Shown piece by piece: positions 14,710 through 22,499 of a DNA stretch of 64,000 bases (position 1 is the first letter of the stretch; each line of letters starts with the position of its first letter). The notes beneath the pieces were generated by a model, which did no database searches, was not told where the DNA came from, and saw only the letters and a program-made list of their open reading frames with translations. Location: positions 868,001-932,000 of the forward strand of contig NZ_VSLZ01000001.1 of NCBI RefSeq assembly GCF_010747475.1, given 5' to 3'. The DNA comes from Halorussus sp. MSC15.2 (GTDB lineage Archaea > Halobacteriota > Halobacteria > Halobacteriales > Haladaptataceae). Position numbers and translations under genes: made by a program.

Positions 14710-15999
14710 TCAGACGAGGTGTCCCGCGACCACGGCGACGACCCACAGCACCGCACCCGCCCGGAGCGCCGGTGTCCACTTGTCCCCTGACGAAGCAGTG
14801 ATTTCCGAGTCGTCCGACCCCGCCCCGGCCGCGATGAGTCCGACGGCGACCACCACGACCGCCCGGTGCGCGGCGACCGGAATCGGCAGGACCGCGACCC
14901 CGAGGGAGGCGTAGTCGAGGACGAGACCCGCGCCGAATCCGAGCGACGCGAGCGCGCCTGCTTCCATCTCGGGGAGACGCCGACCGAGGGCCACGGCCGC
15001 CAGCGGGACGCCCGCGACCAGCACCGGATACCACAGCGCGACCACTGCGTCGGGCGACAGCCACGGGAGGTGTCGCTCGCAGAGGACGCCGCCGAACCGA
15101 ACGACGAGCGGGAGCGCCGCGAGCGTCCCCGTCAGAGCGACCCGTCGGCGGTTCCGTCGGTCGGTGAGCCGTGCCAGATAGCGCCGGGACTTCCGACCGA
15201 GCAGGGGTGCCAGCGCCACCGCGACCACCGTGGACCACCCGTCGGCGTCGTAGGTGTCGTCGTTGGCGTGGTACACTCGGCGGACCGTGAACCCCGGCTT
15301 GCCGAGGAACGCCGACTCGACCCGCCGCTGGGCGACCTCCACGCTATCGACGGTGTGCGTGATGGTGAACCAGTCCCAGTGTTCGGCGTGGGCCTGCACC
15401 GCGGTCCAGTTCCCGTCTCGCGGACCGTAGGCCCGGAGGTGGTGGCGAGCGCCGAAGTACTCCCCGCGGTGGAGTTGGTATCGCTCGGTGACCCAACCCC
15501 GGTCGGCGACGTAGACGTAGCGGGCCGCGCCGGGGGCGTCGCGCCACGGGACGCGCTCGTCGCCGACGACCCCGGTCTCGTCGGGCGGGTCGCCGACCCA
15601 CTCGTCGTCGCTGTGGTTCCACTCGCGGCGACCTGTGAGATACCGCTCCACACGTCGAGGGTCGTCGCGGACGACGACGTTGATGGAACTCGCCCGCCGG
15701 TCGAACGTCCGGCCGGGGGCGACGTACGGCCAGATTCGGGTGTCGCCGACGCTGACCAGCGTCGCTCCGGCGTCGTCGGCGGTTCCGTTCGCCGTCGGTC
15801 CGGTTTCGTCCGCTCGGGCCGCCCCGAGACCGACTGCGTCCGCTCCGACCGCACTCGGTCCGACTGCGTCCGCTCCGACGCTGCGCTGCTCGACCGCGAG
15901 GGCCGACGTTACGACCGCTGGATTCACTACCGCGGACCCCACGACTGCGGACCCGACGAGCGCAAGCACGACGAGACCGACGGTCGTGACACGTCGCAT
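14710..15999 (-). CDS. Multi-pass membrane protein with extracellular domain and AVG repeats
   Basis: 429 residues from ATG 15999. A signal-type helix (5-25) is followed by a low-complexity segment of Ala-Val-Gly repeats (for example AVGADAVGPSAVGADAVG). Then comes an extracellular domain of about 180 residues rich in Trp, Tyr and Arg with Asn-x-Thr sites. Five transmembrane helices fill the C-terminal 150 residues. Function unknown. It shares its upstream leader with the DUF7490-like gene (start 13376). Confidence 0.7.
   Translation of the reverse strand: MRRVTTVGLVVLALVGSAVVGSAVVNPAVVTSALAVEQRSVGADAVGPSAVGADAVGLGAARADETGPTANGTADDAGATLVSVGDTRIWPYVAPGRTFDRRASSINVVVRDDPRRVERYLTGRREWNHSDDEWVGDPPDETGVVGDERVPWRDAPGAARYVYVADRGWVTERYQLHRGEYFGARHHLRAYGPRDGNWTAVQAHAEHWDWFTITHTVDSVEVAQRRVESAFLGKPGFTVRRVYHANDDTYDADGWSTVVAVALAPLLGRKSRRYLARLTDRRNRRRVALTGTLAALPLVVRFGGVLCERHLPWLSPDAVVALWYPVLVAGVPLAAVALGRRLPEMEAGALASLGFGAGLVLDYASLGVAVLPIPVAAHRAVVVVAVGLIAAGAGSDDSEITASSGDKWTPALRAGAVLWVVAVVAGHLV
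15830..15879. repeat. 20-bp direct repeat inside the AVG segment
   Basis: CCGACTGCGTCCGCTCCGAC occurs at 15830-15849 and 15860-15879 with a 30-base period, that is a ten-residue repeat in the encoded protein. Identity at the DNA level suggests recent duplication. Confidence 0.75.
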
Positions 16000-16038
16000 A
16001 TTCCGGGGTTCACAGGGACCGACCAAGTAACTGTGGTC
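16000..16038 (-). promoter_or_regulatory. Shared upstream leader, copy 2
   Basis: On the minus strand: GACCACA, then TTACTT, then CCTGTGAACCCCGGAAT directly before ATG 15999. It matches the leader of the gene starting at 13376 in order and spacing. Unlike copy 1 it lacks a clear TATA box. Confidence 0.45.
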
Positions 16039-16409
16039 CGACCGCCGTAACTTCGACGCGGCGGTGAACGACCATCCGATAGTTCCTGAAGTGAGTCCGC
16101 TGCTGACTACGTGTTGATTCGACCGCAGTCGGCGAGTCGCCGTCCGAAACCGCCGAGGTCGGGAGCCGAGTATAGCAGTACGGAGAGCTATAATCGTCAA
16201 TTAGCGAGCCTTTTCACTCTCGGATGGGTCGCTCCCGACGTGGCGTGCACAACAAGTTGCGCCGCACCCCGACGCTAGGCACCTGTCATCTCGCCACCGC
16301 ACGCCACACCCAGTCAGCCAACAGTCGTGCGACGTCGTCTCATCCCCTTCCCCCATCTGCGTTTTTCGATGCTGTCGAGGGAGAGCAACTCGTTACGGTG
16401 ACTCGGTGA
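16039..16409. other. Intergenic region without a recognisable gene
   Basis: About 370 bases between the divergent-facing end of the nuclease gene and the leader of the 15999 gene. The + strand frame from 16224 (61 codons) has no family signature and codon use unlike its neighbours. An A/T patch, CTATAATCGTCAATTA near 16190, looks promoter-like, but no gene follows it. No RNA fold stood out by eye. Confidence 0.5.
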
Positions 16410-16439: not shown

Positions 16440-19160
16440 TCAGTAACTATACTCGGTGTGCAGAGTTCCGCCCGCGTCGTAGAGCGACACCGTGTCGCCG
16501 CCGTCGTTCCAGACGTACGACCCGCCCCAGTAGAGGTCCGTCGCGGAGTCGGTGCCGTCGCCCGAGTGGAGTCGCACCGTCTCGCCCGCCCCCAGCGAGA
16601 AACCGTCGGGGAACCCGTAGGTGTGGTCCGCCTCGTCTTCGACGGTCCACCCGGTCAGGTCCTGCGCGCTCGACCCGGTGTTCTCGAAGTCCACGTACTC
16701 GTCGTTGAGCGTGGAACCGGCCTCGCTGACCGTCTTCACGGCGATTTTGCTGTCGGAGTCGTTGGTCGGGTACGTCTTCTCGGCGGCCAGATTCCCGGCG
16801 TCGTCGTAGACGGACGCCGTGTCGCCGCCGTCGTTCCAGACCGCCGACCCGCGGTCCCAGTAGAGGTCGGTCGAGGAGTCGGTGCCGCTCCCGGTGTGGA
16901 CGCGCACGGTGTCGCCCGCCCCCAGCGAGAAGCCATCGGGGAAGCCGTAGGTGTGGCCCGCTTCGTCTTCGAGAGTCCATCCGGTCAGGTCCTGCGCGCT
17001 CGACCCGTCGTTTTTCACGTCCACGTACTCGTCGTCGAGCGTCGAACCGTCTTCGCTTATTGTCGGAATCGACACCGAGTAGTCCGACGACGTGCCGGGC
17101 GTGTAGGCGTCGAACAGCGGGAAGGAGCCGTCGAAGACGGTCGTCTCGGGCACTTCCGGACTGGTGGCGACGCTGTTGGTGTCGTCCAGCACTCGGTCGG
17201 CGTTGACTTGGAGGTCGGTGCCGAGTCCGTCGGCGAGGTCGTTGACGTTCGCGCGGGCCGCCGCCGTGGTCTTGCCACTCCCCACTAGAACCACCGCGCC
17301 GCCGTCGGCGACGAAGTCGTTCAGGGCGTCGATTTCGCTCTGTGTGAACGACTCGGGCGGCGTCGTGACGACGACCGCTCGCGCGCCGTCGAGGTTCGCA
17401 CCGGTGAACTCGTTGACGCCCTCCAGCGCGACGTCCTGTCCTTCGAGGTAACGCATGTAGTAGGCGGTGTCCTCGGCCGAGAGACCGTAACTCGCGCCGA
17501 ACTGACCGTGGCCGCCGTCGACGAGAACGTCGCCAGAAGTGTCGGCGAGGTAGTCCACGAGGTTCGTCAGGAAGGCGAAGTTGCCGTAACTCGACGTATC
17601 GGTGCTGTACCCCTCCGACTTCTCGTAGCTCTCGTCGATGAAGGGACCGCCGACTACGCCGACGTTGGCGTCCTCGTCCACCGCTACCAACGGAATGTCC
17701 CCGCTGTAGGCGTAGCCGCCGTCGAGGTCCTGCGTGGCCGTGGACTCGGCGTAGACCGGGACCCGGGAGTCCGGAACGCCGCCGGACGCCGTCCGGACGC
17801 TCGCGGTCTGGGGGAAGAAGAGGTCGTCCACGGGGTTGTCGCGAATCTCGGTGGAGTTCCCGGGGTCGCTCTCGGCCCAGACCTGCGTCCCGTCGGCTCT
17901 CGCGGTCGTCTCGGAGTCGACGAACGCGTCGTGCTTAGCGAACGACGAGTCGTAGACGCGGGCGTGACCGTTCTTCACGAGTCGGTGGTTGTAGTTGGCG
18001 TCCCGGTTCCCGTCGCCCGACGCGTCGTAGTAGATGTAGCCGAGGACGCGGTCGAACGCGTCCCGGACCGGTTCGTTGTCGTCGAACGCGAGGTCCACGG
18101 ACTTCCCGCCGAGTTCGCTCTTGCCGAAGTTAGTGGCGTCGTCCGCCCGGGCTTCGAGGTAGGTGTTGGACTCGATTCCCTCCCACTCCTCTACGCGCTC
18201 GTACTGACTGTTCGAGGACTTCTCGGGGGTGTCCGTGCCGAGGATGCGGATGTTCTCGGTCGTCCCGTCGTCGAACGTGACCTTCACCGTGTCGCCGTCG
18301 ATGACCTCCGTGACAGACACCGTGTAGGTCTTCTCGGGGTCGAGTCCGAGTCCGTCCCGGTCGCCGAAGTAGGAGAACGCGGTGTTGAACTGCGTCGTGA
18401 CCGGTTGGTACGGTTCGCCGCCGTTGCGAATCTCGTCGGTCACTTGGTCGTCGTTGAACCGAAACGCGAGTTCGAGGTGGCTCGCCACGTCGTTGAGATT
18501 CGCGGTCTCGTCGTAGTTACTGTGGTCCGACTGGTCGTGGAGGAACAGCCACCCGCCGTTCGACACGAAGTCCCCGAGAGCACTCAGTTCCGACTGAGTG
18601 AACGCGGTACTCGGCGACGTGATGACCGCCGCGTCCGCAGCCGAGAGGTCGGCGGTCAGCGAGGTGGTCGCGCTCACCGCGTACCCGTTGTTCTCGGCGT
18701 AGCCGTCGAACTCCGCGAACTTCGAGAGAGTGTAGTACTGGCCGTGACCCTCGTCCCAGAGGACGGTGCCCGAACCGCCGAGCGCGTCGTCCCAGACGTT
18801 GAGGACGAACTCTTCGTTCCCCGTCTGCCAGTCGGTGTCGGCGTCCGTGACCAGCATCGACCCGAAGCCGACGACGTTCCAGTCGCTCGCCACGACCGGA
18901 ATCGGGGTATCCTCGCCGTAGGAGACGGCGTCGGCGCTGGTGTCACCGTCGCCGTTCGTCGCGGTGTCCTCGGCCCAGACCGCGACGTGGGCGTCGTCCG
19001 TGAGCGGTGCGTAGTCGTAGGTCACCAGACTCGACGTGGAGTACGCTTCGAGTTCCGGTATCCGACCGGACGCCGCCCGACTCCGACCGGTGAGTTCGAT
19101 ACCCGCGGCCGAACTGCCGGCCGCGGTCGCGAGCGCCGAGAGGAACGTACGTCGGTTCAT
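16440..19160 (-). CDS. Tat-exported multidomain nuclease with DUF4350-like, SNase and lamin-tail domains
   Basis: 906 residues from ATG 19160. Order: Tat signal (RRTFLSAL, R3-R4); a first DUF4350/IFT52-like segment (about 55-265, with DEGHGQYYTLSKF and GGWLFLHDQ); a thermonuclease domain (about 278-430); a second DUF4350-like segment (about 470-690, with DGGHGQFGASYGL and GGAVVLVGSG); two lamin-tail domains (about 705-800 and 815-906, each with DLTGWTxEDEA and YGFPDGFSLGAG). The SNase catalytic set is intact: VIDGDTVKV (D288, D290), R305, DTPE (D310, E313) and R371. Predicted to cut extracellular DNA or RNA, perhaps held to the cell surface or matrix by the lamin-tail domains. Confidence 0.85.
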   Translation of the reverse strand: MNRRTFLSALATAAGSSAAGIELTGRSRAASGRIPELEAYSTSSLVTYDYAPLTDDAHVAVWAEDTATNGDGDTSADAVSYGEDTPIPVVASDWNVVGFGSMLVTDADTDWQTGNEEFVLNVWDDALGGSGTVLWDEGHGQYYTLSKFAEFDGYAENNGYAVSATTSLTADLSAADAAVITSPSTAFTQSELSALGDFVSNGGWLFLHDQSDHSNYDETANLNDVASHLELAFRFNDDQVTDEIRNGGEPYQPVTTQFNTAFSYFGDRDGLGLDPEKTYTVSVTEVIDGDTVKVTFDDGTTENIRILGTDTPEKSSNSQYERVEEWEGIESNTYLEARADDATNFGKSELGGKSVDLAFDDNEPVRDAFDRVLGYIYYDASGDGNRDANYNHRLVKNGHARVYDSSFAKHDAFVDSETTARADGTQVWAESDPGNSTEIRDNPVDDLFFPQTASVRTASGGVPDSRVPVYAESTATQDLDGGYAYSGDIPLVAVDEDANVGVVGGPFIDESYEKSEGYSTDTSSYGNFAFLTNLVDYLADTSGDVLVDGGHGQFGASYGLSAEDTAYYMRYLEGQDVALEGVNEFTGANLDGARAVVVTTPPESFTQSEIDALNDFVADGGAVVLVGSGKTTAAARANVNDLADGLGTDLQVNADRVLDDTNSVATSPEVPETTVFDGSFPLFDAYTPGTSSDYSVSIPTISEDGSTLDDEYVDVKNDGSSAQDLTGWTLEDEAGHTYGFPDGFSLGAGDTVRVHTGSGTDSSTDLYWDRGSAVWNDGGDTASVYDDAGNLAAEKTYPTNDSDSKIAVKTVSEAGSTLNDEYVDFENTGSSAQDLTGWTVEDEADHTYGFPDGFSLGAGETVRLHSGDGTDSATDLYWGGSYVWNDGGDTVSLYDAGGTLHTEYSY

Positions 19161-21016: not shown

Positions 21017-21949
21017 TCAGAGGGTCGACTTGCTCCTGTAGAATATCACCAGTGCCCAGACGACGCCCGCGAACAGGAAGAGGAGCAGTTGATAGTCCTC
21101 GTTGTCCACGCGCAACGCCGCGCCGACCAGCACCAGCGTCAGCGGTGCGGTGAAATCGTACAGGTGTCGCTCGAAGAGGTGGACCGAGTCCCTGTACACC
21201 CTGACGGGTTGGCACACGCCGTTGCCCTTTCGACTGATTTCGTGAAGCTTCAGTTCCTGACGAACGTCGTGGTCGAGGAAGATTTCGGGGATGTCCTCCC
21301 CGGTCTTGCGGATGTCCTCCAAGTGGAGTCGTTCCCGACAGTCCAGATATCGTTGCGAGTCCCTGTTTTTCTGCCGCCGTTTGCGTGCCCGCGTCTCGTC
21401 GTCGAGCGGGAGCGCCTTGACGCCTCTCGCGATACCCCGAGTCGATTCGACCACAACCCTATCGCCCTCCTCGATGCCCAGCAGTTCTATCGTGTTCGCC
21501 GGAATCCGACAGACCCTGTTCTCTAAGTCCGGAAAGACTGCCATGCGGACGCGACACGCCGCCGGACGAACGCCGAGAACCGAGTTCAGGACCCGCCTGT
21601 GCCAGCGTTGCTCCCGGTTCGATATCGGCTTCACCCACACCCGTCCCGCTTCCGTCGCGGTGCCGTAGTTAGTATCGTCGGCCGAGGGAACGCCGAGCGC
21701 CGTGCGAATCGTGAAATCGAGTCCGATTCGCTGGGCCGGCCCGTCGGTCGAACCACGCCGGGGACGTGTCTGGACTCTCGAGTGTATCTCGGTCTCCTTG
21801 TCCGGATTCCTGAGCTTCAGGAACTCCCGCTGGGACGGCCCTCCCCATCCGTCGAGAATCTCGGGGTCTATCTGAACGATATATTCGGTCTCGGCCTCCC
21901 TATCGTTCGTTCTCGTTACCGTGAACGTACTCGGGTGATTCCTTCCCAT
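21017..21949 (-). CDS. AbrB-like protein with C-terminal transmembrane hairpin
   Basis: 310 residues from ATG 21949, overlapping the end of the upstream GGCT-like gene by 50 bases. An N-terminal region of strand-rich sequence is followed by a SpoVT/AbrB-like swapped-hairpin segment (about 150-180, LENRVCRIPANTIELLGIEE). A basic linker follows (RARKRRQKNRD), then two C-terminal transmembrane helices (about 258-274 and 288-306). Such a mix of DNA-binding-like fold and membrane anchor is unusual. Codon use and base composition look less GC-rich than the surroundings. No described function; it is paired with the GGCT-like gene. Confidence 0.65.
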   Translation of the reverse strand: MGRNHPSTFTVTRTNDREAETEYIVQIDPEILDGWGGPSQREFLKLRNPDKETEIHSRVQTRPRRGSTDGPAQRIGLDFTIRTALGVPSADDTNYGTATEAGRVWVKPISNREQRWHRRVLNSVLGVRPAACRVRMAVFPDLENRVCRIPANTIELLGIEEGDRVVVESTRGIARGVKALPLDDETRARKRRQKNRDSQRYLDCRERLHLEDIRKTGEDIPEIFLDHDVRQELKLHEISRKGNGVCQPVRVYRDSVHLFERHLYDFTAPLTLVLVGAALRVDNEDYQLLLFLFAGVVWALVIFYRSKSTL

Positions 21950-22499
21950 TGCCCCACTCCTGAAGGTAGCGTTCGAGGGTCTCCCCGGTCGCCACCTCCG
22001 TAGAGTGTACAAAATCGTCGTAGAAATCAGTGCCCCAATATCTCGCCCCTTTCAGGCAAATTTTTAGGTACCCTGGAATGGGGAGGATGTCGTCGCGTTG
22101 CTTCTCGCCGACGGCGATTTTGACCGGGACCGACAGTGCGTCCTCCCGCGCCGAATCGTAGAACTCGATATCGTCGCTATCGACTTCCTCCATCGTGTAC
22201 CCGCTCTCCCTGTCTATCAGTTCCCCCTTCTCGTCGTCGTAGAGGCGCGGCACGAGTATCCCGTTTATCCACGCGTCCGGGTCCGGGACGACGTTGAGCA
22301 CCGCTCGACGCATCCCGGTGTACGACCGGAAGTCGGCTTCGTTGTTCAGTATCCGCTTGTATCCCCGGACTCGGACCCTGATACCCCGTTCGTAAGAGGG
22401 ATGGGGAAGGTCGTCCCACTCGTCCGGATAGAGCAGACTGCCGTAAACGATAATCCCGACGTCACTGAAATCGCGTTCGGTAGACTGGTCGGCGTCCAT
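21900..22499 (-). CDS. Gamma-glutamylcyclotransferase-like (AIG2/GGCT fold) protein
   Basis: 199 residues. The GGCT-fold entry loop is at IIVYGSLLYPDEW (about 16-28), and the second conserved region ELIDRESGYTMEEVD holds the acidic residue expected at the active site. The rest, from RYWGTDFYDDFV on, is less typical, so the fold is inferred from these two motifs. GGCT enzymes release 5-oxoproline from gamma-glutamyl peptides; related folds occur in antitoxin-like and other roles. The gene overlaps the AbrB-like/TM gene. Confidence 0.65.
   Translation of the reverse strand: MDADQSTERDFSDVGIIVYGSLLYPDEWDDLPHPSYERGIRVRVRGYKRILNNEADFRSYTGMRRAVLNVVPDPDAWINGILVPRLYDDEKGELIDRESGYTMEEVDSDDIEFYDSAREDALSVPVKIAVGEKQRDDILPIPGYLKICLKGARYWGTDFYDDFVHSTEVATGETLERYLQEWGNGKESPEYVHGNENER

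What the first reader, a model, noticed from the sequence alone, without database searches (positions are those of the whole stretch)
16440..19160. Exported nuclease with two DUF4350-like segments, an SNase domain and two lamin-tail domains
The protein combines a folded Tat export signal, an SNase domain with all catalytic residues (D288, D290, R305, D310, E313, R371), two DUF4350-like segments on either side of it and twin C-terminal lamin-tail repeats. I know of bacterial secreted nucleases joined to lamin-tail domains, but not this order in an archaeon. The DUF4350 segments look like degraded glutamine-amidotransferase-like folds and may hold a ligand. It could free phosphate and nucleotides from environmental or biofilm DNA.
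Basis: partly seen in the sequence, partly recalled or inferred. Interest (0 to 1): 0.65.

Follow-up and report, generated by a model that had tools for sequence, protein, structure and literature searches.

The report
Secreted nuclease clasped by GIFT domains
A salt-loving archaeon exports a DNA/RNA-cutting enzyme of the staphylococcal-nuclease type that sits between two matching, possibly sugar-binding 'GIFT' domains; about a quarter of related genomes carry this undescribed family, and in some members another GIFT domain is inserted right inside the nuclease.

Summary
Window 16440-19160 (-) encodes 906 aa: twin-arginine leader, DUF4350/GIFT, SNase, DUF4350/GIFT, two lamin-tail domains (Pfam). 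The SNase model superposes on staphylococcal nuclease at Z 19, 1.9 Å, and D288, D290, R305, D310, E313 and R371 are invariant in all 106 family SNase rows. The flanks are one duplicated domain (profile-profile E 6e-38), homologous to IFT52's GIFT domain (E 7e-9).
The gene is not unusual: 77 of 292 sampled genomes of its class carry the GIFT-SNase-GIFT core (my count), with 0, 1, 2 or 4 lamin tails. No such core was found in non-halobacterial genomes of the phylum or in viral contigs. It is a clade distinct from the HVO_1477-type SNase-lamin nucleases, which are known in haloarchaea to support growth on DNA (PMC3929857).
Best reading: secreted Ca2+-dependent nuclease with GIFT domains as ligand (perhaps glycan) binders. 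GIFT function is inferred.

The parts
19068..19160 (-). Twin-arginine (Tat) leader, residues 1-31: MNRRTFLSALATAAGSSAAGIELTGRSRAAS; no cysteine anywhere in the protein, so not a lipoprotein
   Evidence: sequence; R3, R4 invariant in 28 full-length homologues; no Cys
18345..19067 (-). GIFT1 (DUF4350-like), residues 32-272
   Evidence: Pfam DUF4350 / ABC_transp_aux / IFT52_GIFT, two stretches each; hhalign to GIFT2 E 6e-38; IFT52 chain E 0.0034
18738..18755 (-). D136-E-G-H139-G-Q141 motif, at the end of the first parallel strand of GIFT1 (putative ligand site); repeated as D548-G-G-H551-G-Q553 in GIFT2
   Evidence: invariant/nearly invariant columns; strand 131-136 in the model
17871..18335 (-). 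SNase domain, residues 276-430; catalytic D288, D290, R305, D310, T311, E313, R371
   Evidence: Pfam SNase; Z 19, rmsd 1.9, 131 residues against staphylococcal nuclease; residues invariant in 93 + 13 relatives
18159..18176 (-). SNase loop (residues about 329-334) at which relatives carry one or two inserted GIFT domains; no insertion in the window protein
   Evidence: SNase split at segment positions 57/62 in at least 13 relatives
17085..17840 (-). GIFT2 (DUF4350-like), residues 441-692
   Evidence: Pfam; IFT52 chain E 6.9e-9 with the family profile
16770..17084 (-). Lamin-tail domain 1, residues 693-797
   Evidence: Pfam LTD; lamin A/C and B matches in sequence and fold
16443..16763 (-). Lamin-tail domain 2, residues 800-906; recent tandem copy of LTD1 (209 bp at 85% DNA identity)
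   Evidence: Pfam LTD; direct repeat

Best explanation
A Tat-exported, cell-surface or matrix-associated, Ca2+-dependent non-specific nuclease of the staphylococcal-nuclease fold. Folded in the cytoplasm as haloarchaeal Tat substrates are, it is released outside, where the SNase domain cuts DNA and RNA. Two flanking GIFT domains, copies of one module, hold a polar ligand (most likely glycan or extracellular polymer) and so place the nuclease on its substrate or on the cell coat; the lamin tails add a second, dispensable adhesion or spacer module. The products feed phosphate and nucleoside scavenging. Shown by sequence or model: export motif, fold, intact active site, duplicated GIFT flanks, LTDs, family distribution. 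Inferred: nuclease activity, metal, location, GIFT ligand, nutritional role.
For: Domain hits (EcnA model 9e-30, though below that model's own cut-off); SNase fold Z 19; all catalytic residues invariant in 106 diverged relatives, so the activity is under selection; RR motif invariant; the SNase domain is the only part rich in K/R (10% against 2-4% elsewhere), fitting nucleic-acid contact; the related haloarchaeal SNase-LTD protein HVO_1477 is needed for growth on DNA (PMC3929857); GIFT1 of a relative superposes on residues 73-298 of the O-glycopeptidase IMPa at Z 12.5, an enzyme reported to bind a ligand at an exosite in its N-terminal domain (PMC10550946); GIFT domains were proposed to bind sugars (PMC7226087); invariant polar residues of GIFT1 (D136, H139, D212, D217) lie after the parallel strands, where GATase-like folds bind ligands.
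Against: No biochemical data for any GIFT-SNase-GIFT protein was found. The IMPa match comes from a low-confidence model (mean pLDDT 68.5, though most of its GIFT1 part is 70-93), and I did not show that the IMPa exosite lies in the matching region. The gene stands alone, with no phosphate or nucleotide genes beside it.
Confidence: 0.68

Rival explanations
1. The GIFT domains are not ligand binders but gates: they pack against the SNase active-site face and restrict substrate (for example to single strands or short ends) or keep the enzyme latent until it meets its site.
For: GIFT flanks both sides of SNase and in at least 13 relatives is also inserted at the loop after the catalytic DTPE motif; in site-one protease a GIFT-subdomain loop is proposed to control active-site access (PMC11231238).
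Against: The polar invariant residues of GIFT1 look like a ligand site rather than a mere interface; no inter-domain geometry was available.
Confidence: 0.25
2. The protein serves antagonism or defence outside the cell (destroying incoming DNA, viral genomes or competitor DNA) rather than nutrition.
For: PADLOC lists a candidate model named 'SNc+LTD' that matches at 8.7e-22; several copies sit on haloarchaeal plasmids.
Against: The PADLOC entry is only named by its domains here and covers SNase+LTD; 41 of 110 distinct family ORFs are plain G-S-G without LTD; no defence neighbours among the genes read.
Confidence: 0.1
3. It tunes the eDNA matrix of haloarchaeal biofilms, with GIFT/LTD as matrix anchors; feeding is secondary.
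For: Extracellular DNA is abundant in Halorubrum lacusprofundi biofilms and an MBL-LTD protein is more abundant in them (PMC5118699).
Against: No expression data for this family; not separable from nutrition by sequence.
Confidence: 0.2

Closest known systems
HVO_1477-type haloarchaeal SNase-LTD nuclease (Haloferax volcanii; also L001 in this genome)
   Same: Exported SNase plus C-terminal lamin tail in a haloarchaeon; same catalytic residues
   Different: One LTD, no GIFT domains, about 310-350 aa, reported lipobox in HVO_1477; SNase domain falls in a separate clade (branch support 100/100, length 0.74)
Staphylococcal nuclease / EcnA-type calcium-activated nucleases
   Same: SNase fold Z 19, 28% identity over 131 residues, full active site; EcnA model E 9e-30
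   Different: Single-domain enzymes; the window protein is below the curated cut-off of both NCBIfam equivalog models
IFT52 / GldG / OST48 (Wbp1) GIFT domains; IMPa N-terminal region; site-one protease GIFT subdomain
   Same: Flanks are homologous to the IFT52 GIFT domain (E 7e-9); fold similarity to IMPa (Z 12.5) and S1P (Z 8) in a relative
   Different: None of those is joined to a nuclease domain (general knowledge of these proteins)
Haloarchaeal 'ComA'-like MBL-LTD lipoprotein (Halobacterium ComA, Hlac_1867; L164 here)
   Same: Exported, LTD, linked to eDNA in the literature (PMC5118699)
   Different: Metallo-beta-lactamase in place of SNase; no GIFT

Membership tests
Staphylococcal nuclease (SNase, PF00565) superfamily | OB-fold SNase domain over the curated cut-off | tested here: met
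   43.5 bits against a cut-off of 21; fold Z 19
Staphylococcal nuclease (SNase, PF00565) superfamily | Catalytic Asp/Asp/Arg/Asp/Glu/Arg set | tested here: met
   D288, D290, R305, D310, E313, R371; invariant in 106 relatives
Staphylococcal nuclease (SNase, PF00565) superfamily | Ca2+-dependent DNase/RNase activity | not testable with these tools
   needs purified protein
EcnA calcium-activated nuclease (NF047969) | Score over the equivalog cut-off of 180 bits | tested here: not met
   103.6 bits
HVO_1477-type SNase-LTD nuclease | SNase domain in the same clade | tested here: not met
   separated by a 100/100 branch of length 0.74 in the SNase tree; the type is represented by L001 and relatives, HVO_1477 itself was not in the tree
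HVO_1477-type SNase-LTD nuclease | N-terminal lipobox | tested here: not met
   no cysteine in the whole protein
HVO_1477-type SNase-LTD nuclease | C-terminal lamin-tail domain | tested here: met
   two LTDs; but 0-4 across the family
GIFT domain (IFT52/GldG/DUF4350) | Significant profile match to a solved or curated GIFT domain | tested here: met
   IFT52_GIFT 41.3 bits, cut-off 27.2; IFT52 chain 6.9e-9 for GIFT2 and 0.0034 for GIFT1
GIFT domain (IFT52/GldG/DUF4350) | Sugar binding | not testable with these tools
   proposed in the literature only (PMC7226087)
Class I glutamine amidotransferase | Cys-His-Glu triad | tested here: not met
   no cysteine in the protein
Tat substrate | Twin-arginine leader before a hydrophobic stretch | tested here: met
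   MNRRTFL..., RR invariant in 28 homologues; export itself not tested

The most novel reading that the evidence does not exclude
GIFT is a mobile, regulatory module of a haloarchaea-specific nuclease family: it flanks the SNase domain and has been duplicated, repeatedly, into the loop next to the SNase active site (one or two nested copies) without loss of any catalytic residue, so that a GIFT ligand switches or aims nuclease activity. A nuclease controlled by nested GIFT domains would be a new kind of enzyme design.
Probability: 0.25. Interest if true: 0.7.

Novelty: new variant of a known kind. Interest (0 to 1): 0.48.

Why it matters
In the literature found here, the exported nuclease HVO_1477 is the one gene shown to be needed for DNA feeding in a haloarchaeon, and only that short type has been studied. 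Here is a second, larger family in about a quarter of sampled genomes, joined to a domain otherwise known from cilia (IFT52), gliding motility (GldG) and N-glycosylation (OST48/Wbp1), whose ligand is still unproven. A soluble, cysteine-free, secreted protein with two to five natural GIFT copies is a good system for settling what GIFT domains bind, and the nested insertions test how much an enzyme fold tolerates at its active-site loop.

Tried and rejected
Operon or phosphate-regulon context: the gene stands alone between an AstE/AspA-like gene and an unnamed membrane protein, with no phosphate genes. Viral origin: none of 116 pattern matches in viral contigs encodes a relative. Wider archaeal spread: in a 393-genome phylum sample, non-halobacterial genomes gave only lone SNase or lone LTD matches among the listed rows. 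Structure of a split-SNase relative (L129): mean pLDDT 68.5, much of the SNase halves under 50, so whether the two halves close into one domain is unresolved; SNase did not appear among the 50 best VIA rows, which is not evidence against it. Other DUF4350 hits in the genome (C2, C4, C6 and the GH42-like one on C1) are membrane or unrelated enzymes, not paralogues. EcnA literature search found nothing relevant; no paper in the library holds both DUF4350 and nuclease.

Full report
OBSERVATION. The minus-strand ORF 16440-19160 encodes 906 aa, starting MNRRTFLSALATAAGSSAAG. Pfam gives LTD twice, DUF4350 twice, SNase once; the flanks also score over cut-off for ABC_transp_aux and IFT52_GIFT. The mature protein has pI 4.05, 18.6% D+E, no cysteine; the SNase domain alone is rich in K+R (10%).

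FOLD. AlphaFold2 with 42 homologues gives mean pLDDT 86, pTM 0.64. Residues 276-429 superpose on staphylococcal nuclease at Z 19, rmsd 1.9 over 131 residues, 28% identity, including the Ca2+/pdTp complex 1SNC. Foldseek also finds lamin A/C tails and IFT52 N-terminal domains.

THE FLANKS ARE ONE DOUBLED DOMAIN. Profiles of GIFT1 (A4) and GIFT2 (A5) align over 223 columns, 36% identity, E 6.1e-38. The GIFT2 profile finds IFT52 at 6.9e-9, GIFT1 at 0.0034. In the model the motif D136-E-G-H-G-Q141 follows the first parallel strand (131-136), and D212/D217/T219 follow the strand 204-208; these are invariant or nearly so. That is where GATase-like folds place their ligand (general knowledge of the fold). 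GIFT2 keeps G549, G550, Q553, F554 but fewer polar invariants. So GIFT1 probably binds something; 'degraded' is not what the conservation says. There is no amidotransferase cysteine.

FAMILY AND SPREAD. A search of 292 genomes of the class with the window protein gives 77 genomes with a match at E below 1e-75, that is GIFT-SNase-GIFT proteins (my count). A scan of 84,980 species genomes gave 95 relatives; the 75 loci kept are all from Halobacteria (one record is titled only 'uncultured archaeon'), though the patterns were drawn from haloarchaeal sequences. In a 393-genome sample of the phylum the listed non-halobacterial matches cover only SNase (about 270-435) or LTD (about 685-793). Viral contigs: none. 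Plasmid-borne copies exist in Halostagnicola, Haladaptatus, Natronosalvus and Natronococcus, annotated only as PKD, lamin tail or thermonuclease proteins.

ARCHITECTURES. Among 110 distinct SNase+GIFT ORF records read: G-S-G 41, G-S-G-L 30, G-S-G-L-L 12 (the window's type), G-Sn-G-Sc-G 12, G-Sn-G-G-Sc-G 1, forms with three to five GIFT matches before SNase 4, forms lacking GIFT1 6, and a few fragments or odd forms (G GIFT, S SNase, L LTD; Sn and Sc the two halves of a split SNase). LTD is thus optional and GIFT-SNase-GIFT is the core; some tails carry PKD-like repeats instead. These counts come from the loci fetched, not from an even sample.

NESTED GIFT. In at least 13 loci the SNase matches fall into two pieces, segment 1-57 and 62-168, with a full GIFT between them. 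The break is at window residue about 330, in the loop after the catalytic DTPE and a conserved ERxxEWEG stretch and before the first long helix. All catalytic residues are retained across the two halves. L140 has two GIFT domains there. On the SNase tree the split form needs 4 changes, although well-supported branches force only one; on a quick GIFT tree several inserted copies lie beside the N-terminal GIFT of the same protein or lineage, which suggests more than one duplication event. That tree is small, so the number of events is open.

RELATION TO HVO_1477. Chimileski et al. 2014 showed that HVO_1477 (lipobox, SNase, lamin tail) is needed for growth of Haloferax volcanii on DNA (PMC3929857). 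The present genome carries one SNase-LTD protein of that type (L001) and an MBL-LTD lipoprotein (L164). The GIFT family is another clade: the 19 SNase and SNase-LTD rows are cut off by a 100/100 branch of length 0.74. Four divergent GIFT rows sit on the same side of the midpoint root as these, so monophyly of all GIFT-SNase rows is likely but not proven.

MECHANISM. Exported folded by Tat (inferred from the RR motif), free of a lipid anchor (no Cys), the SNase domain should cut DNA and RNA with Ca2+. GIFT as ligand binder rests on the proposed sugar binding of GIFT domains (PMC7226087), conservation at the fold's ligand edge, and resemblance of a relative's GIFT1 to IMPa residues 73-298 (Z 12.5), an O-glycopeptidase with a ligand-binding exosite in its N-terminal domain (PMC10550946). 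GIFT as gate is the main rival; S1P offers a precedent (PMC11231238).

VERDICT. It is not a one-off: it belongs to a widespread haloarchaeal nuclease family for which I found no description, whose most unusual trait, nested GIFT domains in the nuclease loop, occurs in relatives and not in the window. I file it as a new variant of a known kind.

Noticed in passing
L077, L113, L115, L118, L125, L126, L129, L130, L132, L134, L140, L146, L154: SNase domain interrupted by one (L140: two) full GIFT domains at the same loop, catalytic residues intact across both halves.
   Followed up: yes
L075 (1323-5867 -), L078 (1717-5607 -): Single ORFs of about 1300-1500 aa with about five GIFT matches before the SNase domain; some matches are partial.
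   Followed up: partly
L122, L124, L128, L136, L147, L153: In Halorubrum a gene with one GIFT domain (plus a DUF1102 match in L128) ends within a few bases of, or overlaps, the start of the GIFT-SNase-GIFT ORF: a likely operon of a nuclease and a stand-alone GIFT protein.
   Followed up: partly
L068 (1100-3769 -): A relative in the same genus lacks GIFT1 and carries four lamin tails.
   Followed up: no
L053, L054, L075: Lamin tails replaced by C-terminal PKD-like repeats.
   Followed up: no
window 16443-17084: The two lamin-tail domains are a recent tandem duplication: 209 bp at 85% and 83 bp at 78% DNA identity.
   Followed up: yes
L164 (own genome C2:378205): Lipoprotein with metallo-beta-lactamase and lamin tail, the ComA/Hlac_1867 type linked to eDNA in the literature.
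   Followed up: partly
window 14710-16200 (-) and 21017-22012 (-): Neighbouring ORFs, 14710-16200 with no Pfam match at all and 21017-22012 with only sub-threshold ones.
   Followed up: no
window 17709-18326 (residues 279-484 of the protein): PADLOC holds a candidate defence model called 'SNc+LTD' that matches this protein at 8.7e-22; its basis was not examined.
   Followed up: no
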